Shown: one piece after another, positions 5,484 to 14,262 of the stretch | Layout of the letters: each line of letters opens with the position of its first letter | Numbering within the stretch: position 1 is the first letter of the stretch | From: Puniceicoccaceae bacterium | Lineage (GTDB): Bacteria > Verrucomicrobiota > Verrucomicrobiia > Opitutales > JAFGAQ01 | DNA: 64,000 nt | Direction of reading: 5' to 3' | Assembly (NCBI GenBank): GCA_028285755.1 | Contig: JANQOQ010000006.1 | Span: 248,001 to 312,000, forward strand | Notes under the pieces: model-generated | What the model saw: only the letters and a program-made list of their open reading frames with translations | Told to the model about the DNA's origin: nothing | Database searches by the model: none | Position numbers and translations under genes: made by a program

Positions 5484-6719
5484 ATGTCTTCGAACCGTCA
5501 GAAGTCGCTCGAGCTGTATGAGCGTGCCGTTTCCGTTATTCCGGCGGGAGTATACGGCCACACAAGCCCAGCAGCGACATTACCGATCGCATTTCCTTAC
5601 TATGCCGAAAGTGCGGAAGGTTGCACTTTTACGGATGTGGATGGCAACCGATACATCGATTTCATGTGTGCCTATGGGCCGATCCTATTGGGTTACAATC
5701 ATCCCGAGATCGAAGCGGCTGCCCGTGAGGAAAAGGCGAGGGGAGGCCTCTATAACCACCCCGCAAAGGTCATGGTAGAGCTAGCTGAGCTCCTGACAGA
5801 GCGTATCGACTTTGCGGACTGGGCGGTATTCGGCAAAAATGGCTCAGACATGACTACCTGGGCACTGCAGGTCGCCCGGCAACACACAGGCCGTAAGAAG
5901 GTCCTCACCGTTAAAGGCGCATACCATGGGGTGGATGCGTGGACCAACCCCTCACCCGGCGGCGTCATCGAGGAAGATCGCCTGCATATTCACCATTTCA
6001 GTTGGAACGACCTTTCGTCATTCGAACAACAGGTCAATCGATACCCGGGTGAGATCGCTGCAGTCATGCTCACTCCATTTCATCATCCCGCATTTGCAGC
6101 AAATGTATTACCCGGTGAAGGCTTCTTTGAGGGCATTCAAAAAATCTGCAATGCAAACGATATCTTGATCATACTCGATGATATTCGCTGTGGTTTCCGC
6201 CTTCACGAGGCAGGTTCTCACAAACGTTTTCCCATTGAGCCCGACATGTCATGCTACTGCAAAGCCCTGGGTAACGGTTACCCCATCTCAGCCACGGTCG
6301 GCAAAGATCATCTTCAGGCCGCGGCGGGCAAAGTCTTTTTGACGGGGAGTTACTGGAGTGATGCCGTATCCATGGCAACCGCCAAACGCTGTGTTGAGCT
6401 CGTCGCAGAGCTTAATATCCCCGAAAAGCTGAACACTCTCGGCAAACGCCTGATAACCGGTCTTGAAGAAGCGGCAGCCAACGCAGGACTTAAAGTCACA
6501 GGCCACGAACCCTATGCGATGCCTTATCTGACCTTTGAGGATGATCCCGATCTGCGAAAAATGCAGCGTTTCTCAGAAATCTGCGCGAATGAGGGCGTGA
6601 TTTTCCATCCCCATCATAACTGGTTCATCAGCGCTGCACATACAACGGAAGCGATTGATGATGCGATTGAAATCGCATCAAAAGCCTTTCAGGCAGTTGC
6701 GAGTGAGTTTAACTCATAA
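5484..6719 (+). CDS. class III PLP aminotransferase, glutamate-1-semialdehyde aminomutase-like
   Basis: A 411-residue fold-type I PLP enzyme. The phosphate-cup motif GKNGSDMTTWAL (117-128), the cofactor-stacking KGAYHGVDAW (144-153), the PLP-ring Asp in LDDIRCGFR (231-239) and the Schiff-base Lys260 in YCKALGNGYPISA are all present. The pattern is closest to glutamate-1-semialdehyde 2,1-aminomutase and related class III aminotransferases found in natural-product clusters. It is the first gene of a six-gene run with oleA/oleB-like genes, 5 nt after the pseudouridine synthase. Because it sits with lipid genes rather than heme genes, I infer it acts on a fatty amino or keto substrate. The native reaction is unknown. 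Confidence 0.85.
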   Translation: MSSNRQKSLELYERAVSVIPAGVYGHTSPAATLPIAFPYYAESAEGCTFTDVDGNRYIDFMCAYGPILLGYNHPEIEAAAREEKARGGLYNHPAKVMVELAELLTERIDFADWAVFGKNGSDMTTWALQVARQHTGRKKVLTVKGAYHGVDAWTNPSPGGVIEEDRLHIHHFSWNDLSSFEQQVNRYPGEIAAVMLTPFHHPAFAANVLPGEGFFEGIQKICNANDILIILDDIRCGFRLHEAGSHKRFPIEPDMSCYCKALGNGYPISATVGKDHLQAAAGKVFLTGSYWSDAVSMATAKRCVELVAELNIPEKLNTLGKRLITGLEEAAANAGLKVTGHEPYAMPYLTFEDDPDLRKMQRFSEICANEGVIFHPHHNWFISAAHTTEAIDDAIEIASKAFQAVASEFNS

Positions 6720-6732
6720 TAAGGTATTTCAT

Positions 6733-8175
6733 ATGACGCGCGAAAACCGCATGACTAGGGTTGATGATTATTACGATGTGGTCGTAATCGGCAGTGGACT
6801 GGGTGGCTTAACCGGAGCACACTGCCTGGCAAAAGAGGGGTATTCGGTCTTATTGCTGGAGCAACATTATCAGTTGGGCGGACTGGCTACCTGGTTTAAG
6901 CGCAGGGGAGGGCACACCTTCGATATATCCCTCCACGGTTTCCCTATTGGCATGATCAAATCCTGCCGTCGCTACTGGGATAAGGAAATAGCCGACTCGA
7001 TTATCCAGCTAAAGGACATTCGTTTCGTTAATCCTCAATTTGAAGTCGAAACCACCTTCGATCGAGAGAATTTCACAGAAATTCTGACTGAAAAGATGGA
7101 GGCTCCCGCTAAACAGGTAGAGGCTTTCTATGAGCGTATCAATAACCAGGAGTTCTTCATGGATAGCGATCAGACCACTGCTGAACTCCTCGAAGAGTAC
7201 TTCCCGGGTCGTAATGACATCAAACGTCTGCTTCTGGAACCCATCGCATACGCAAATGGTTCTACCGAGGATGATCCGGCACTCGTATACAGCATTGTCT
7301 TTTCAAACTTCATGAAGAAGGGTATCTACACGTTTCAGGGCGGAACGGATTTACTCATCCAAAAGATGGCCCGCCGACTCAAAGACAAAGGGGTCGTAAT
7401 CAAAAAGCGGGTCTCTGTAGATCGTATCTTAACCAATGGCAACCAGCAGGTCACCGGCGTGGAAGCCAATGGGCAAACTATCCGTTGTCGTGCAGTCCTT
7501 TCGAACTCAAACCTGAAGCACACCATCTTCGGGCTCATCGATAAACAAGATTACAGCGACCCCTCATTTCTGGAAGACGCTGAAAAAGTGCGCCTTAACT
7601 CAAGTTCCTGCCAGGTCTACATGGGTATCCGTGAAGGGGAAACTATCCCCAACGTAGGGGATCTCATATTTGTCTCCGATGCGGAGCACTTCAGCTCCGA
7701 TGAACTCAAATCGCCGGATACACTCAGTCGCACATTCTCATTTTATTATCCGGATATTCGCCCCCAATCCAAGAAACCCCGCTACAGTGTAGTCGCCTCA
7801 ACCAATGCAAATTGGGCTGACTGGCAATCCCTCAGCGACGAGGAATATGAAGCCAAAAAACAGGCTCTGATCGAAACCACATTAGCAACTCTCGAGCGCT
7901 TTATCCCGGATGTTCGCGATAAGATTGACCATATCGAAGCCGCGACCCCCCGCACCATACACCACTATACCCGACATCTGCGCGGAGCCTCCTTTGGAAC
8001 CAAATATGAAGGATTGAAAGTATCTCAAACGCTCCCTGAGAAGATCAAAGGCGCCTACCATGCAGGCTCCGTGGGTATCATCATGTCCGGCTGGCTAGGC
8101 ACCATTAATTACGGAGTGATCACAAGTGCAAAAGTCGCAAAATTTCTGCAGGATTCTACTCAAGAGTCAGCTTGA
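6733..8175 (+). CDS. CrtI-like FAD-dependent oxidoreductase (phytoene desaturase / retinol saturase type)
   Basis: A 480-residue flavoprotein. The dinucleotide-binding fold is at the N terminus (VVVIGSGLGGLTGAHCLAKE, about 17-36), followed by LLLEQHYQLGGLATWFKRRG as in phytoene desaturase and retinol-saturase relatives, and the C-terminal FAD contact is AGSVGIIMSGWLGTINYG. The start at 6733 is chosen because AAGG at 6721-6724 makes an SD 8 nt before it; a longer frame from 6655 would overlap the aminotransferase. Family members desaturate or saturate long conjugated or acyl chains. Its position between an aminotransferase and FabZ/FabI-like genes suggests action on a lipid chain. Confidence 0.85.
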   Translation: MTRENRMTRVDDYYDVVVIGSGLGGLTGAHCLAKEGYSVLLLEQHYQLGGLATWFKRRGGHTFDISLHGFPIGMIKSCRRYWDKEIADSIIQLKDIRFVNPQFEVETTFDRENFTEILTEKMEAPAKQVEAFYERINNQEFFMDSDQTTAELLEEYFPGRNDIKRLLLEPIAYANGSTEDDPALVYSIVFSNFMKKGIYTFQGGTDLLIQKMARRLKDKGVVIKKRVSVDRILTNGNQQVTGVEANGQTIRCRAVLSNSNLKHTIFGLIDKQDYSDPSFLEDAEKVRLNSSSCQVYMGIREGETIPNVGDLIFVSDAEHFSSDELKSPDTLSRTFSFYYPDIRPQSKKPRYSVVASTNANWADWQSLSDEEYEAKKQALIETTLATLERFIPDVRDKIDHIEAATPRTIHHYTRHLRGASFGTKYEGLKVSQTLPEKIKGAYHAGSVGIIMSGWLGTINYGVITSAKVAKFLQDSTQESA

Positions 8176-8636
8176 CTGGCACAACTCTCATAACAACACT
8201 CCTCAAAGTGCATTCAGTAAAGGACTACATCCCACACCGGGAACCATTTTTATTTGTGGATGAGATTCTGGATCTCTCAACAGAAAGCGTCACCACTCAG
8301 TTAACTCTACGAGAGGATTTCAGCTTCTTTCAGGGGCACTATCCCGGGAATCCCATCATGCCGGGAGTAATCATGTGTGAATCGGTATTTCAGACGGCTG
8401 CGATTTACATGACCCATCTGGCCCGGAGCGAGGGAAAACCCGAAGGAGAGGGCACTCCTCTGCTCAGTCGTATAAAAGGAGCCCGGTTCAAACGAATGGC
8501 AAAACCCGGGGATGTGCTTACGATCACCGTTAAACCATCAGGTCAGGAGGGTGGATTTGCATTTATGAATGGTAAAGTGACCAATGCCGATGGGCAACTA
8601 GTCGTCGGAGTCGACTTCGTCATCACCCAAAAATAA
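8172..8636 (+). CDS. FabZ/FabA-type 3-hydroxyacyl-ACP dehydratase
   Basis: A 154-residue hot-dog-fold dehydratase. The active-site helix reads GHYPGNPIMPGVIMCE, with catalytic His56 and Glu70, and the N-terminal YIPHREPFLFVDEI is typical of FabZ. It removes water from 3-hydroxyacyl-ACP. The frame opens at TTG 8172, overlapping the oxidoreductase stop by 4 nt (TTGA); GTG 8208 would also be a good start and would give a length closer to FabZ (about 142). A duplicate of the housekeeping FabZ in a lipid cluster suggests a dedicated chain-modifying role. Confidence 0.88.
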   Translation: MTGTTLITTLLKVHSVKDYIPHREPFLFVDEILDLSTESVTTQLTLREDFSFFQGHYPGNPIMPGVIMCESVFQTAAIYMTHLARSEGKPEGEGTPLLSRIKGARFKRMAKPGDVLTITVKPSGQEGGFAFMNGKVTNADGQLVVGVDFVITQK

Positions 8637-8638
8637 GT

Positions 8639-9445
8639 ATGGACCCACTGCAACTCAGCGGTAAGCACTTTTTGATTTTCGGCGTCTCCAATAAGCGCAG
8701 TGTAGCATGGTGCGTCGCAAAATCCCTAATGAGTCTCGGAGCAGAGGTTTACCTAAGCGTGCGTAATGAGCAGAGACGCGAGGAAGTAAAATCATTTACC
8801 AAGTGTGAAAACACTTATACCTGCGAAGTTGAAAATCTGGAGGAGATCAAAGCTCTTGCGCAACTATTTGCTGAAAAAGGCATAAAGCTGGATGGTATCG
8901 TGCACTCAATCGCTTTCGCAAACTATCGGGATGGCGTCCCCAAGTTTTATGAGACCAAGCGGGAGGATTATCTGCAGGCCACACAGATCTCCGCGTTCTC
9001 CCTGGTTGAAATCGCAGGATCCTTCAAATCCTCCCTTAACCCTCAAGCCTCAGTGGTGACTGTCGGCATATCTTCCACAGAGGTTACCGCCGAGAACTAC
9101 GGCTACATGGCAGCCGTAAAAGCTTCACTCAATGCAATGGTGCGCTACCTGGCAAAATCGTTCAGCAGCGACACAGAAGTACGCTTTAATAGCGTCGATG
9201 CAGGCCCTTTGAAGACGAAATCATCCGCCGGCATACCCGGATATCTCAAAAACTATCTGTATGCCGAGCAACTGACCTACCGCAAGCGTGCAATTAGTGT
9301 AGCCGAGGTAAGCAACACCATCCTGTTTCTACTGAGCCCACTCTCCAGTGGCATCAATGCACAAGGCATCGTAGTCAATGCGGGTATGGATTTTAACTAC
9401 TTTGACACAAATATTGTTGAAAAAGTCACCGACATAGACGGGTGA
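8639..9445 (+). CDS. FabI-like enoyl-ACP reductase / SDR, altered active site
   Basis: A 268-residue short-chain dehydrogenase closest to NADH-dependent enoyl-ACP reductase FabI. The cofactor loop is FGVSNKRSVAWCVAKSL (14-30; FabI has GVASKLSIAYGIA) and DGIVHSIAFAN follows. The catalytic pair Tyr154 and Lys161 in NYGYMAAVKASL is kept, as is AGPLKT. The second conserved FabI tyrosine, ten residues before the catalytic one (the SYLG position), is Ile144. This points to a changed substrate pocket; it could reduce an enone or ketone other than enoyl-ACP. It starts 2 nt after the dehydratase. Confidence 0.82.
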   Translation: MDPLQLSGKHFLIFGVSNKRSVAWCVAKSLMSLGAEVYLSVRNEQRREEVKSFTKCENTYTCEVENLEEIKALAQLFAEKGIKLDGIVHSIAFANYRDGVPKFYETKREDYLQATQISAFSLVEIAGSFKSSLNPQASVVTVGISSTEVTAENYGYMAAVKASLNAMVRYLAKSFSSDTEVRFNSVDAGPLKTKSSAGIPGYLKNYLYAEQLTYRKRAISVAEVSNTILFLLSPLSSGINAQGIVVNAGMDFNYFDTNIVEKVTDIDG

Positions 9446-9460
9446 TAGATTCTCGAGAAC

Positions 9461-10498
9461 ATGCAATTTACGAACGTAGTCCTGGAAAGCACCGCGCTTC
9501 ATCTGCCTGATGAAGTCTGGACGTCCGACGATATTGAAAATCAATTCAAACCCACTTACGACCGACTCAACCTTTCGGTAGGCCGCTTGGAGCATATGAC
9601 AGGGATTGCTGAGCGCCGGGTTTGGGAACCGGATTTTCTACCTTCACGAGAAGCGGCTAAAGCAGGCGAAAAGGCACTTGCCAGATCAAACATCAAACCC
9701 GAAGACATCGGCTTGCTCATACACTCGGGAGTATGCAGGGACCGATTGGAGCCCTCCACCGCAGCTTACGTCCATAAAAACCTGGGCCTGCCCGCAAATA
9801 CGCAGATCATGGATATCTCAAACGCGTGCCTGGGTTTCTTGAATGCCATGATCCACGCAGCCAGCATGATCCAAAACGGCATCATCAAAGCGGCCTTGGT
9901 GGTCACAGCCGAGAATAGTCGCACTTTGCTCGAGAATACGATCGAATCGCTCAAAGCACTCGATATAAATCGCAAGACGCTTAAGCCCTATTTTGCAAAT
10001 CTTACCATTGGCTCGGGAGCTGTAGCAGGCATTCTATGTCACAGCGATCTGACTGCTGAAGGGGCAAGTTTTGAGAGTTACAGCATCCATACAAACTCTG
10101 CTTACAATCACCTGTGTGAAGGCGGAGATGTCGCAGCTGGGCACGGTTACGAGATGCAGACCGATTCAGAAAAACTGCTTATCGCCGGTATCGATGTGGC
10201 CAAAAACGCTTGGAATGCCTTTAAGAAAGTAACCCACTGGACCAATGACAGCATCAACCACTACATTTGCCACCAGGTGGGTAAAATGCACCAGGCCGCT
10301 CTTTATGAGGGATTAGCCCTAAATCCACTGAAAGACTATTCCACTTATTCCTATTTGGGAAATATGGGTTCGGCGGCACTCCCGGGCACCCTTGCGCGTG
10401 CTTCGGAATCGGGCACCTTTCGTTCCGGTGAGCAGGTTGCCTTATTAGGCATCGGCAGCGGGGTGACTTCGCTCATGCTCGCCATGCGTTGGATCTAG
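9461..10498 (+). CDS. oleA: OleA-like thiolase-fold condensing enzyme (KAS III family)
   Basis: A 345-residue thiolase-superfamily enzyme that matches OleA better than FabH. OleA joins two fatty acyl-CoAs head to head into a beta-keto acid. The nucleophile is Cys123 in SNACLGFLNA. Glu97 in RDRLEPSTA lies 26 residues before it, the same spacing as Glu117/Cys143 in Xanthomonas OleA, and this Glu is a hallmark of OleA. HQV (near 268) and GNMGSAALP supply the His and Asn of the triad. The N terminus, including PTYDRL, also resembles OleA. The neighbour is OleB-like, but oleC and oleD are absent. The gene symbol is by similarity. Confidence 0.82.
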   Translation: MQFTNVVLESTALHLPDEVWTSDDIENQFKPTYDRLNLSVGRLEHMTGIAERRVWEPDFLPSREAAKAGEKALARSNIKPEDIGLLIHSGVCRDRLEPSTAAYVHKNLGLPANTQIMDISNACLGFLNAMIHAASMIQNGIIKAALVVTAENSRTLLENTIESLKALDINRKTLKPYFANLTIGSGAVAGILCHSDLTAEGASFESYSIHTNSAYNHLCEGGDVAAGHGYEMQTDSEKLLIAGIDVAKNAWNAFKKVTHWTNDSINHYICHQVGKMHQAALYEGLALNPLKDYSTYSYLGNMGSAALPGTLARASESGTFRSGEQVALLGIGSGVTSLMLAMRWI

Positions 10499-10502
10499 GG
10501 CA

Positions 10503-11402
10503 ATGAATGAGGCCGATTCACAGACGCTGGCGTCCGAATATCCCTTTGAAAGTCGCTACATAACAATCGATCATTCTCTGGAAGCAGGCCGGCGAAGCTC
10601 GAAAATTCACTACATTGATGAAGGAGTAGGGGAGCAGACTCTGCTCTTTATACATGGTAACCCTACTTGGTCTTACTACTTTCGACATGTCATAAAGGCG
10701 CTTAAAAACGACTTCCGGTGCATTGCGATCGACCACCTCGGTTGTGGTCTGTCAGAAAAACCGGCAAGCGGAACCTTCCTGCTAAAGGATCGCATCGATC
10801 TTTTAAAATCGTTCGTAAGCTCACTTGGTTTGGAACGTTTTTCTCTGGTCATGCATGATTGGGGAGGACCCATAGGCATGGGTTTGGCAACTCAAATGCC
10901 GGAACGTATCGATAAGCTCATTGTAACCAACACCATCGCATTTCGTTCCGACTGGATTGCCTGGCAGATCAATATGTGCCGACAACCGGTAATCGGCAAA
11001 ATCCTAAACTATTACGCTAATGGATTTCTGAGAGCGGCCATGCAAATGACCACTGTCAAGCCTTTGAAAGCCAATACAAAAAGGGGCTACCTGATGCCAC
11101 ACCGAAAGCCCAGCGACCGTTTATCGATTCACGAGTTCGTAAAGGACATCCCCATGAGCTCAAAGCACCGTAGCTATGATTCCATTCTGGATATCGAGAG
11201 TAAACTCTCGTTGTTTCGTGATGATCAGGTATCGATACTATGGGGCATGAAAGACTTTTGCTTCGCTCCCCGTTTCCTTAAAAATTGGGAAGCCATTTAT
11301 CCAAATTCTCCCCAACACTCATTCGAAAAAGCCGGGCATTTCTTATTTGAAGATGCACCTGATGAGTGCAGCACCATTATCCGGAATTTCGTCCGCGCTT
11401 AG
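10503..11402 (+). CDS. oleB: OleB-like alpha/beta hydrolase (haloalkane-dehalogenase family)
   Basis: A 299-residue hydrolase. FIHGNPTWSYYFR (49-61) and MHDWGGPIGMGLA (117-129) are the OleB/haloalkane-dehalogenase motifs: Asn53 and Trp120 for the leaving group, Asp119 as nucleophile, and a His in AGHFLFEDAP near 279. OleB decarboxylates cis-beta-lactones to cis-olefins in long-chain olefin synthesis. It starts 4 nt after the OleA-like gene, so an Ole role is far more likely than a dehalogenase role. The beta-lactone synthetase OleC is not in the window, so its substrate here is open. Its 3' end overlaps a convergent membrane gene by 26 nt. Confidence 0.8.
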   Translation: MNEADSQTLASEYPFESRYITIDHSLEAGRRSSKIHYIDEGVGEQTLLFIHGNPTWSYYFRHVIKALKNDFRCIAIDHLGCGLSEKPASGTFLLKDRIDLLKSFVSSLGLERFSLVMHDWGGPIGMGLATQMPERIDKLIVTNTIAFRSDWIAWQINMCRQPVIGKILNYYANGFLRAAMQMTTVKPLKANTKRGYLMPHRKPSDRLSIHEFVKDIPMSSKHRSYDSILDIESKLSLFRDDQVSILWGMKDFCFAPRFLKNWEAIYPNSPQHSFEKAGHFLFEDAPDECSTIIRNFVRA

Positions 11403-12231
11403 ATTTCTTAAATTCTGGATAGCATTCAATTGTGTCTCCGGCCTGCACTAACAATGGGCTTTGCTCTGCCCGTATTTGATCATTGATATATAAATCAAAA
11501 CTCAATTCATCAGAAGAAACATCGACGATGATCTCAAATTTTCCCACATCGAGCATATCCATTTTCTTACCTTCTTCCCAGGAGAGGGGAGCATCCCCAC
11601 GGATAAAAAGCTCATTATGATTACCAATAAAAGAATAAACCTGGATATGGGTAGGCAGATTAAACTCAGGAACCATATCCGCATCATCGATAAGCATCTC
11701 CTCTTCGCCTTCCGCTTCTTCCACCGGCTCAAAGCTTAGGAAAATCTGATTCTTATCCTCGGGAGTCTCCTGCATATCTACAGTTTCAGAAAGCTCCTCA
11801 GAATCCGCATCTTCCGTTCCCAAAGCGGCCGCTTTTTCCGCAAATAGCTTAAACGCTTCAACATTGGATGCATCCAGTTCCAGCTCAGCAAGGGAAAGCC
11901 CTGAAATTTGAGTAATCTTTTCTTCTAATTTTTGATTAACAACAACTTGCAGATCTTCCTGTCGCTCAAGAAGACGATTTATTGCTAGCGTATTTTCCTC
12001 TAATTGAATCAATTTTTGATGATAAATGATGAAAATAGGAGCAAAATAAGCACCAAGTAATTGAATCAAAGAAAGCCCGATGCAGCTCATATAAGCGACT
12101 ATTGCCGCAAAGCCCATAGGCTCTTTCGCCAAAAAAATAACCGCAATAGCTAATACAAAAAATACAAAACTACCAATATAAAGTGGTAATTGAATGCGGT
12201 TAAATGCCTGTGAATTCTCAGTTTTCGTAAT
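11377..12231 (-). CDS. membrane protein with C-terminal beta-sandwich-like domain; no NTG start
   Basis: About 284 residues, function not recognised. Two membrane helices at the N terminus (IGSFVFFVLAIAVIFLA, then a longer one ending GAYFAPIFIIY), a coiled-coil-like segment (LEENTLAINRLLERQED), an acidic linker, and a C-terminal domain (ELFIRGDAPLSWEEGKK to ECYPEF) that resembles E-set/starch-binding-like domains. The first NTG in frame (TTG 12130-12132) lies inside the first helix, so coding must begin earlier. Upstream codons are open back to the TAG that ends the HPt gene in the same frame. ATT at 12229-12231 or ACG at 12226-12228, behind an AGGAA, are the only plausible starts; stop readthrough is the alternative. 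Confidence 0.55.
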   Translation of the reverse strand: MTKTENSQAFNRIQLPLYIGSFVFFVLAIAVIFLAKEPMGFAAIVAYMSCIGLSLIQLLGAYFAPIFIIYHQKLIQLEENTLAINRLLERQEDLQVVVNQKLEEKITQISGLSLAELELDASNVEAFKLFAEKAAALGTEDADSEELSETVDMQETPEDKNQIFLSFEPVEEAEGEEEMLIDDADMVPEFNLPTHIQVYSFIGNHNELFIRGDAPLSWEEGKKMDMLDVGKFEIIVDVSSDELSFDLYINDQIRAEQSPLLVQAGDTIECYPEFKKSKRGRNSG

Positions 12232-12237
12232 TAATTC

Positions 12238-12645
12238 CTAAATGGTTCCACCCAATTTGGCAACTTCATTACGTAATTCTGCAACAAATGCATTCACATG
12301 CTGATTCAGCTCGGCAACAGGTTCAGTTAGTACAGACGGGGTAAAATCATCATCCTTATAGCAACTGTTATGCTCGAGATGTTTAGCATGCTCAGATAAT
12401 TGATCGCCTCCCAGCGACTTGGCAGTGGACTTCATGGAATGCGCCGATCGATTAAAAACCTCCCAGTCCTTTGTGGTAAACGAGTTATGGATCTCCGTGG
12501 ACAGTGCCTGGGTTTCGGTGACGCAGTCGCTTGCGATATCTACCAATATCTCTAGTTCGTTGTCACATACTTCGTCGTAAAACCGTCTGAGTATATCCGT
12601 ATCTATTACCTGCATTGAATCCCTTACTGTGTTTTGAGCCATCAC
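12238..12645 (-). CDS. HPt (histidine phosphotransfer) domain protein
   Basis: A 135-residue protein that is essentially one HPt domain, a four-helix bundle that relays phosphate between histidine kinases and response regulators. The phospho-accepting His69 lies in NRSAHSMKSTAKSLGG, the classical HPt signature, followed by the small-residue turn. No kinase or regulator is nearby, so it probably serves a distant hybrid kinase. Start may be codon 1 or 2 (MM). It ends in TAG, and the next gene continues in the same frame without an NTG codon. Confidence 0.87.
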   Translation of the reverse strand: MMAQNTVRDSMQVIDTDILRRFYDEVCDNELEILVDIASDCVTETQALSTEIHNSFTTKDWEVFNRSAHSMKSTAKSLGGDQLSEHAKHLEHNSCYKDDDFTPSVLTEPVAELNQHVNAFVAELRNEVAKLGGTI

Positions 12646-12750: not shown

Positions 12751-14262
12751 TTAGTTACGACCGTATAAATCCGCTAGCTCACGCAGATAGGGAAGGGCCC
12801 CCTCAAACTGATTCAGTTGCTCCCAACTGCTTCGCCAACCCCAATTTCCCGAGGCAAGACCCGGCACATTCATGCGTGCGTGCTCATCAAGTGCTAAGAA
12901 ATCCTGAAATGGGATTATACAAAGATTGGCAACACTGCGGTATGCCGCACGGATGAGATCCCAGGAGACTTCATCACCACTGACCATTAGGTAGCGCCTT
13001 AGATGATCCCGTGTCTTATCGTCCGTCTGTTTATACCAGCCAAGTGACGTATCATTATCATGTGTACCTGTGCAGATCACAGTGTTCGGGCTGATATTAT
13101 GGGGCAGGTAGAAATTATCCGATTCTCCGCCAAATGCAAATTGCAGCACAGCCAACCCCGGGAAACCGGAATCCAGCTTCAAGTCCAGCACCTCGGGCGT
13201 AATTACCCCCAGATCCTCCACGATCAACTTTGCGTGGGGGAGTACCTGCTTCATAGCCTCAAAGAATGCGATACCAGGGCCTTTCACCCATTTACCTTCC
13301 TTGGCAGTCTCCGCCTTGTGCGGGATGGACCAGTATGCCTCGAGCGCACGAAAATGATCGAGCCGTACCACATCAAATTGCTCCAGAGAGTGCTTCAGAC
13401 GTCGCATCCACCAAGCAAAATTCTCCGTTTTCATGGCCTTCCAGTCATACAGCGGATTCCCCCAGAACTGTCCGTCCTCATTAAAATAGTCAGGCGGGAC
13501 ACCGGCGAGCCGGGTAGGGGTCAACCGTTTTCCATATTGGAATAATTCTACATTTGCCCAGGTATCCGCACTGTCTGCAGATACATAGATAGGCAAATCT
13601 CCAACGATTTGGATTCCCCGCTCATTCGCGTACTGCTTCAGCTGATTCCATTGGTGATAGAGTAGATATTGCTCAAATTGTACCGCCTTAAGCGCATCTC
13701 CATGCGTTTTTTGCAAATCCTTGATAAGTTCCGCAGAATAGGCCCTATGTGCTTTTTTCCACTCATACCAGACCTTATCCCTGTTGAGCGCCTTTAAGCA
13801 GATAAAGGCTGAATAATCGATAAGCCAATGGGAATTAGCCTCAACAAAAACGTTAAAAGGCTCCTTATGCGCCTCATCGGCCAATCCCGCAGTGATAGCT
13901 TTCTGATAGAGTGTCGGGTGTATGCCGCGAATGGCATCAAAGTCAGCAGAAGTATGTGATAATACTTTTAAAGGCAGTAAATCATGTTGAGTGATCCAGC
14001 CATAGCCCACAAAGGGGTTCCAATCAATCAACATACTATTCAGCGCAAAGCTACTGTACGATTGATAGGGCGAATTTCCATAACCCGTCGGGCACATCGG
14101 CAACACTTGCCAGTAGCGCATATGCCCTGCACTGAGCAGATCGATAAACTTATAGGCCGCTTCGCCCATATTCCCAATACCCGTACCTGAAGGTAGCGAT
14201 GTGATATGCAACAATGCGCCGCTGGAACGCTGGTTTAACCAATTAAAAAGTGGTTCATTCAT
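12751..14262 (-). CDS. malQ: 4-alpha-glucanotransferase (amylomaltase, GH77)
   Basis: A 503-residue GH77 enzyme that moves alpha-1,4-glucan segments between maltodextrins. LPSGTGIGNMG and the donor-site CPTGYGNSPYQSYS (58-71) are diagnostic, as is GDLPIYVSADSADTWAN (221-237). Catalytic residues are the nucleophile Asp302 in VVRLDHFRALEAYW, acid/base Glu349 in IVEDLG, and the stabilising Asp in GTHDNDTS (402 or 404). Length fits the family (about 500). It is a single gene with a 467 nt non-coding stretch upstream. It likely works with the GH13 enzyme at the right edge in glycogen use. Confidence 0.96.
   Translation of the reverse strand: MNEPLFNWLNQRSSGALLHITSLPSGTGIGNMGEAAYKFIDLLSAGHMRYWQVLPMCPTGYGNSPYQSYSSFALNSMLIDWNPFVGYGWITQHDLLPLKVLSHTSADFDAIRGIHPTLYQKAITAGLADEAHKEPFNVFVEANSHWLIDYSAFICLKALNRDKVWYEWKKAHRAYSAELIKDLQKTHGDALKAVQFEQYLLYHQWNQLKQYANERGIQIVGDLPIYVSADSADTWANVELFQYGKRLTPTRLAGVPPDYFNEDGQFWGNPLYDWKAMKTENFAWWMRRLKHSLEQFDVVRLDHFRALEAYWSIPHKAETAKEGKWVKGPGIAFFEAMKQVLPHAKLIVEDLGVITPEVLDLKLDSGFPGLAVLQFAFGGESDNFYLPHNISPNTVICTGTHDNDTSLGWYKQTDDKTRDHLRRYLMVSGDEVSWDLIRAAYRSVANLCIIPFQDFLALDEHARMNVPGLASGNWGWRSSWEQLNQFEGALPYLRELADLYGRN

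What the first reader, a model, noticed from the sequence alone, without database searches (positions are those of the whole stretch)
11377..12645. Membrane gene with no NTG start lies in frame directly behind the HPt gene's stop
The frame of the membrane protein runs back without break to the TAG that ends the HPt gene. Its first NTG codon is in the middle of the first membrane helix, so translation must begin earlier. In the 35 codons after the TAG there is no ATG, GTG, TTG or CTG. Options: an ATT (12229-12231) or ACG start behind AGGAA, TAG readthrough giving a membrane-anchored HPt fusion, or a sequence error.
Basis: seen in the sequence. Interest (0 to 1): 0.6.

Follow-up and report, generated by a model that had tools for sequence, protein, structure and literature searches.

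The report
Conserved AUU/AUC start behind HPt gene
A membrane-protein gene in a Verrucomicrobia-type bacterium (order Opitutales) has no ordinary start codon, and its nearest relatives also lack an ATG there and carry ATT or ATC at the same spot just after the preceding gene, so it most likely starts at this weak codon using ribosomes finishing the neighbour.

Summary
On the minus strand the membrane-protein frame is open from the HPt gene's TAG (12240-12238) and has no ATG, GTG, TTG or CTG for 35 codons; the first, TTG 12132, is the last residue of the first predicted membrane helix. It is not a sequence error. The HPt-membrane pair occurs in three other genomes of the same GTDB family, none with an ATG at the equivalent start. 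Instead ATT (window), ATT (G004) and ATC (G002) align at one codon, followed by ACG-AAN; G001 has ATT-ATC there. Distance and frame between HPt stop and this codon vary (6, 8, 10, 9 nt; frames 0, +2, +1, 0), and G004 has an in-frame TGA 3 nt upstream, so TAG readthrough or a conserved fusion is ruled out as a shared mechanism. Distant homologues elsewhere in Opitutales, not behind HPt, start with ATG at the equivalent position. The genome hardly uses Shine-Dalgarno sequences, so 'AGGAA' is unconvincing. Best reading: a family-wide AUU/AUC start codon served by termination-reinitiation after HPt, giving low, HPt-coupled synthesis. The start position is well supported; coupling and IF3 control are inferred. 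Two of the four genomes (G002, G001) offer alternative NTG starts.

The parts
12238..12615 (-). HPt (histidine phosphotransfer) gene, likely start ATG 12615; stop TAG 12240-12238
   Evidence: Pfam Hpt E 1.2e-6, 29.1 bits over cut-off 24.6; orthologues 60-66% identical begin at this ATG
12229..12231 (-). Proposed start codon ATT of the membrane gene, 6 nt behind the HPt stop
   Evidence: aligned to ATT in G004, ATC in G002 and ATT-ATC in G001; the only invariant column among the first 23
11377..12231 (-). Membrane protein gene: about 8 residues, helical hairpin, coiled coil, acidic linker, C-terminal beta domain
   Evidence: open frame, coding signal, matches in 34 of 52 genomes searched, model topology (low confidence)
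12130..12207 (-). First predicted membrane helix; TTG 12132-12130 is its last codon
   Evidence: secondary structure of the low-confidence model H9-34; sequence
12232..12237 (-). 6-nt intercistronic gap GAATTA; no conserved SD
   Evidence: gaps of 6, 8, 10 and 9 nt in the four genomes; anti-SD duplex -4.2, -2.2, +0.1, -0.8 kcal/mol
12256..12270 (-). AATGAAGTTGCCAAA at the HPt 3' end: conserved at synonymous sites, possible cis element or coincidence
   Evidence: 4 of 5 codons identical in all four genomes versus 5 of 52 other invariant degenerate columns
12268..12273 (-). CGUAAU, complementary to AUUACG of the proposed start (12231-12226); in window and G004 only
   Evidence: single-strand folds; no conserved structure in the alignment

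Best explanation
The membrane protein is translated from a non-canonical AUU start codon (12231-12229). This start is inherited within its bacterial family (AUU in the window and G004, AUC in G002, AUU/AUC in G001). The codon lies 6-10 nt behind the HPt stop and has no conserved Shine-Dalgarno sequence. The most likely route is termination-reinitiation: ribosomes that finish HPt find the AUU/AUC close by and load initiator Met-tRNA at low efficiency. The membrane protein is thus made in limited amounts and only when HPt is translated. Shown: the lack of NTG, the aligned ATT/ATC, coding conservation from this codon on, changing frame and gap to HPt, ATG in distant homologues not behind HPt. Inferred: initiation itself, coupling to HPt, IF3 sensitivity and the resulting stoichiometry.
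For: No NTG for 35 codons. ATT/ATT/ATC align at one codon followed by ACG-AAN; Ile is the only invariant residue in the first 23 alignment columns. In G004 the frame has TGA-TTT-ATT, so no upstream start is possible. Codons 1-16 of G004 versus G002 differ mostly at third positions (3, 4, 10) and keep S-L-K-x-F-P-x-G, so the part before the first NTG of G004 is translated. The gap before ATT/ATC varies in length and frame, so conservation of reading frame begins at this codon. Homologues outside the family start with ATG about 8-11 codons before helix 1, the same distance. AUU/AUC-type starts are established elsewhere: infC and, as GTC, sigR (PMC5472188), AUU of cvfC1 and AUA of ccpN (PMC13009471). 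Short stop-start distances favour coupling (PMC12548453).
Against: No protein or ribosome data. Only four genomes, of which two are strictly forced: G002 has in-frame ATGs inside the HPt gene (for instance 1459) and G001 has TTG 707 at the helix edge. ACG at the next codon is shared by three of the four and cannot be excluded. The known conserved AUN starts I could check come with strong SD sequences; this one has none, so efficiency should be very low unless coupling helps. RNA folds show no conserved structure.
Confidence: 0.72

Rival explanations
1. TAG readthrough gives a membrane-anchored HPt fusion.
For: In the window and G001 the membrane frame is in phase with HPt.
Against: In G004 and G002 the frames are +2 and +1; G004 and G001 stop HPt with TAA; G004 has TGA in the membrane frame before ATT. 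No suppressor-type tRNA among the tRNAs found in 2.3 Mb of the genome (incomplete).
Confidence: 0.03
2. Start at ACG 12228, the codon after ATT.
For: ACG follows ATT/ATC in three of the four genomes.
Against: Not at this place in G001 (ATC AGG GAA ACG, three codons later). ACG is generally held to be a weaker start than AUU in bacteria (general knowledge). The invariant codon is the Ile one.
Confidence: 0.07
3. Start at TTG 12132 or other internal NTG; the upstream part is untranslated.
For: TTG is an ordinary start; G004 and G001 have TTG near the helix start.
Against: It would remove helix 1 in the window. The TTGs are not at equivalent positions. Codon-wise conservation lies upstream of the G004 TTG. 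Homologues with ATG start 8-11 codons before the helix.
Confidence: 0.05
4. An out-of-frame mini-ORF starting at the ATG inside the HPt end (12269-12267, ATG AAG TTG CCA...) brings ribosomes to AUU: in the window it ends at UAA overlapping AUU (UAAUU), in G004 at UGA 3 nt before AUU; in G002 the same ATG is directly in frame.
For: ATGARGTTGCC is present in all four genomes with unusual synonymous conservation.
Against: In G001 this frame runs on past the site. The ATG arises from the conserved Asn-Glu pair, and AAT is the Asn codon at all three invariant Asn positions.
Confidence: 0.07
5. Sequencing or assembly error, or a decaying pseudogene.
For: Single draft genome read on its own.
Against: Three other genomes share the missing ATG and an open frame (G001 cut by its contig end); third-position excess of changes.
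Confidence: 0.03

Closest known systems
E. coli infC (AUU) and its AUC (Streptomyces) / AUA (S. aureus) counterparts
   Same: A conserved AUN start other than AUG in a chromosomal gene
   Different: infC encodes IF3 and is autoregulated; in this order infC begins with ATG in the genomes read. The gene here is a membrane protein and has no SD
E. coli pcnB (AUU; Binns and Masters 2002, known from the reference list of PMC13009471)
   Same: Low expression through an AUU start is the proposed effect
   Different: A different gene, not known to me to be coupled to an upstream stop (from memory)
S. aureus cvfC1 (AUU) and ccpN (AUA), PMC13009471
   Same: Conserved non-canonical starts; reporters gave about 10% of AUG in poor medium
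   Different: Those sites have extended SD pairing; here there is practically none
Streptomyces sigR GTC start, PMC5472188
   Same: Conserved non-canonical start in a regulatory two-gene unit where the ratio of products matters
   Different: sigR is the upstream gene and has a strong SD; here the downstream gene bears the odd codon
Termination-reinitiation in closely spaced gene pairs (PMC6728339, PMC10666635, PMC12548453, PMC2268962)
   Same: Short stop-start distance, same strand
   Different: The pairs described there, as far as read (abstracts and passages), use ordinary start codons

Membership tests
Genes with conserved non-NTG (AUN) start codons | No NTG start compatible with the conserved coding region | tested here: met
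   window and G004 forced; G002 and G001 have possible alternatives
Genes with conserved non-NTG (AUN) start codons | Same AUN codon position conserved in orthologues | tested here: met
   ATT, ATT, ATC, ATT/ATC aligned; only four genomes
Genes with conserved non-NTG (AUN) start codons | Strong SD before the weak start (usual in described cases, not strictly defining) | tested here: not met
   duplex energies -4.2 to +0.1 kcal/mol versus -8.8 for a standard SD; genome SD-scarce
Genes with conserved non-NTG (AUN) start codons | Initiation with Met shown experimentally; IF3-sensitive | not testable with these tools
   needs peptides, profiling or reporters
Termination-reinitiation (translationally coupled) gene pairs | Same strand, short stop-start distance kept in orthologues | tested here: met
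   6, 8, 10 and 9 nt
Termination-reinitiation (translationally coupled) gene pairs | Downstream synthesis depends on upstream translation | not testable with these tools
   reporter experiment needed
Stop-codon readthrough fusions | Downstream frame in phase with the upstream gene in orthologues | tested here: not met
   frames 0, +2, +1, 0; in-frame TGA in G004
HPt domain proteins (upstream gene) | Profile match and phospho-accepting His | tested here: met
   Pfam Hpt 29.1 bits over cut-off 24.6; invariant His69 in AHSMKS

The most novel reading that the evidence does not exclude
In an SD-scarce bacterial lineage, a gene placed directly behind another lost its ATG in a common ancestor and has since kept AUU/AUC as its start, with the ribosome supplied by reinitiation instead of a Shine-Dalgarno sequence: a start codon tuned weak to set the ratio of a membrane protein to its HPt partner.
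Probability: 0.5. Interest if true: 0.6.

Novelty: new variant of a known kind. Interest (0 to 1): 0.47.

Why it matters
Conserved AUU-type starts are known for only a handful of bacterial genes, and those I could check come with strong SD sequences. Gene finders do not usually consider such starts, so this gene would tend to be annotated truncated, without its first membrane helix. If confirmed, it shows that reinitiation can replace both AUG and SD, and gives a naturally repeated case (several genera) to test how far IF3 discrimination applies to reinitiating ribosomes.

Tried and rejected
TAG readthrough and frameshift fusion: rejected by frames and the in-frame TGA in G004. SD-driven AUU: AGGA not conserved, genome SD-scarce. 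Conserved RNA structure around the start: only a 3-pair hairpin without covariation; pairing of AUUACG with CGUAAU occurs in the window and G004 only. AUU as autoregulated infC-type start: infC has ATG here. Domain assignment of the membrane protein: no Pfam or NCBIfam family above cut-off, no PDB sequence match for the C-terminal domain; structure prediction was poor (mean pLDDT 47.7), so no fold search was made. 16S rRNA was not found in the assembly, so the anti-SD could not be read. The remaining 45% of the genome could not be fetched.

Full report
What is there. On the minus strand, malQ (12751-14262) is followed by an HPt gene and then, after TAG 12240-12238, by a membrane-protein frame that ends at 11377. 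From the TAG the frame reads GAA TTA ATT ACG AAA ACT GAG AAT TCA CAG GCA TTT ... and has no ATG, GTG, TTG or CTG until TTG 12132, 35 codons on. The predicted first helix covers residues 9-34 counted from ATT, so TTG is its last residue (the model is poor, but the topology agrees with the hydrophobic stretch). The frame has strong coding statistics, also in the part before TTG.

Relatives. Five genomes of its GTDB family are held; four have the HPt gene and the membrane gene directly behind it, with malQ upstream in the window, G004 and G002. HPt orthologues are 60-66% identical to the window's, membrane proteins 18-32%. None has an ATG at the equivalent start. G004: HPt TAA, CTGATTTT, ATT ACG AAT AAG GAT ... 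with TGA-TTT directly before ATT in frame. G002: HPt TAG, ATGCATTTCT, ATC ACG AAG AAC GAT. G001: HPt TAA, GTCATTCCC, ATT ATC AGG GAA ACG. The Ile codon is the only invariant column among the first 23 of the protein alignment.

Where translation begins. G004 and G002, the closest pair, differ in codons 1-16 at 3, 4 and 10 first, second and third positions and share ITxxDxxSLKxFPxG; before ATT/ATC the gap changes in length and phase. Coding constraint therefore begins at or very near the ATT/ATC codon. In the window and G004 no NTG can serve. In G002 ATGs inside HPt are in frame, and in G001 TTG 707 is possible; these two are compatible with, but do not force, ATC/ATT.

Before and outside this family. 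Homologues in other Opitutales families have the same build (short N-terminus, helix, coiled coil, conserved C-terminal domain with RGDGPGLSW...GKW). In the cases inspected they are not next to an HPt gene and have ATG about 8-11 codons before helix 1, which is the distance of ATT/ATC from helix 1 here. The simplest history is that ATG was replaced by AUU/AUC in the ancestor of this family, where the gene sits behind HPt.

How it may work. In this genome SD-like tetramers are not enriched before ATG starts, and anti-SD pairing there is weaker than inside genes; this fits reports of SD-scarce Verrucomicrobia (PMC10783764). The AGGA of the window is not present in the other three genomes. With a gap of 6-10 nt in all four, reinitiation by the ribosome that ended HPt is the likeliest supply; a review finds that coupling is most efficient at short distances (PMC12548453). 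Reinitiation without SD is inhibited by excess IF3 in E. coli (PMC2268962), and IF3 represses odd start codons (PMC5472188), so synthesis should be low and IF3-sensitive. This part is inference. Low synthesis relative to HPt would be the effect; that the membrane protein anchors or partners HPt is a guess from co-location only.

Rarity. In 2.34 Mb of the genome the screen of 1838 gene-like ORFs gave 42 flags, most of them ordinary genes with chance open frames upstream. Reviewed by eye, the real special cases were prfB (frameshift), dnaX (frameshift) and this gene, so the screen finds known recoding, and start-less frames of this kind are not common here (genes with an NTG soon after a non-NTG start would be missed). 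An earlier 800-kb screen also pointed to a glycosyltransferase whose frame has only CTG or ATT before its conserved start.

Other signals. The last codons of HPt (AAT GAR GTT GCC AAA) are almost identical in all four genomes (4 of 5 codons versus 5 of 52 elsewhere). This may be a cis element or chance. No conserved RNA structure was found. In the window and G004 the start AUUACG can pair with CGUAAU in HPt, which would fit unmasking by HPt translation, but G002 and G001 lack the pairing.

Comparison. Known conserved non-canonical starts are infC, pcnB, cvfC1 and ccpN, and sigR; for those checked in papers (sigR in PMC5472188; cvfC1, ccpN and S. aureus infC in PMC13009471) a strong SD is present. 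This case shares the conserved weak codon but lacks the SD and sits behind a stop codon, so I call it a new variant of a known kind, pending experimental proof.

Noticed in passing
G000 contig C15:545233-546198 (+), outside the window (L091): Glycosyltransferase-like (GT2) gene whose frame has no ATG/GTG/TTG for 39 codons; CTG GAT ATT AAA ... PKISIIVPSYNQ, with the upstream gene's TAA overlapping ATT. Possible second non-canonical start.
   Followed up: partly
G000 contig C2 about 367.2-367.6 kb: dnaX-like gene with a run of ten A (AAAAAAAAAAG) just before its stop, and a 103-codon frame continuing beyond: likely programmed frameshift for tau/gamma.
   Followed up: partly
G000 contig C2:328047-329183: prfB with the usual frameshift site (GGAGGTATCTTTGAC), a rare strong SD-like element in an SD-scarce genome.
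   Followed up: partly
window genome as a whole: SD motifs not enriched upstream of starts; G depleted and A-rich positions at -14, -11, -8, -4 and -3, resembling Bacteroidetes leaders.
   Followed up: partly
window 12256-12270 (-): Burst of synonymous-site conservation at the 3' end of HPt in four genomes.
   Followed up: partly
window 6655-11402 (+): Apparent run of FAD oxidoreductase, FabZ-like dehydratase, enoyl-reductase-like SDR, ketosynthase III-like and alpha/beta hydrolase genes (only the hydrolase was tested by profile; the others judged from sequence), convergent with the membrane gene; the last two are also next to it in G004.
   Followed up: no
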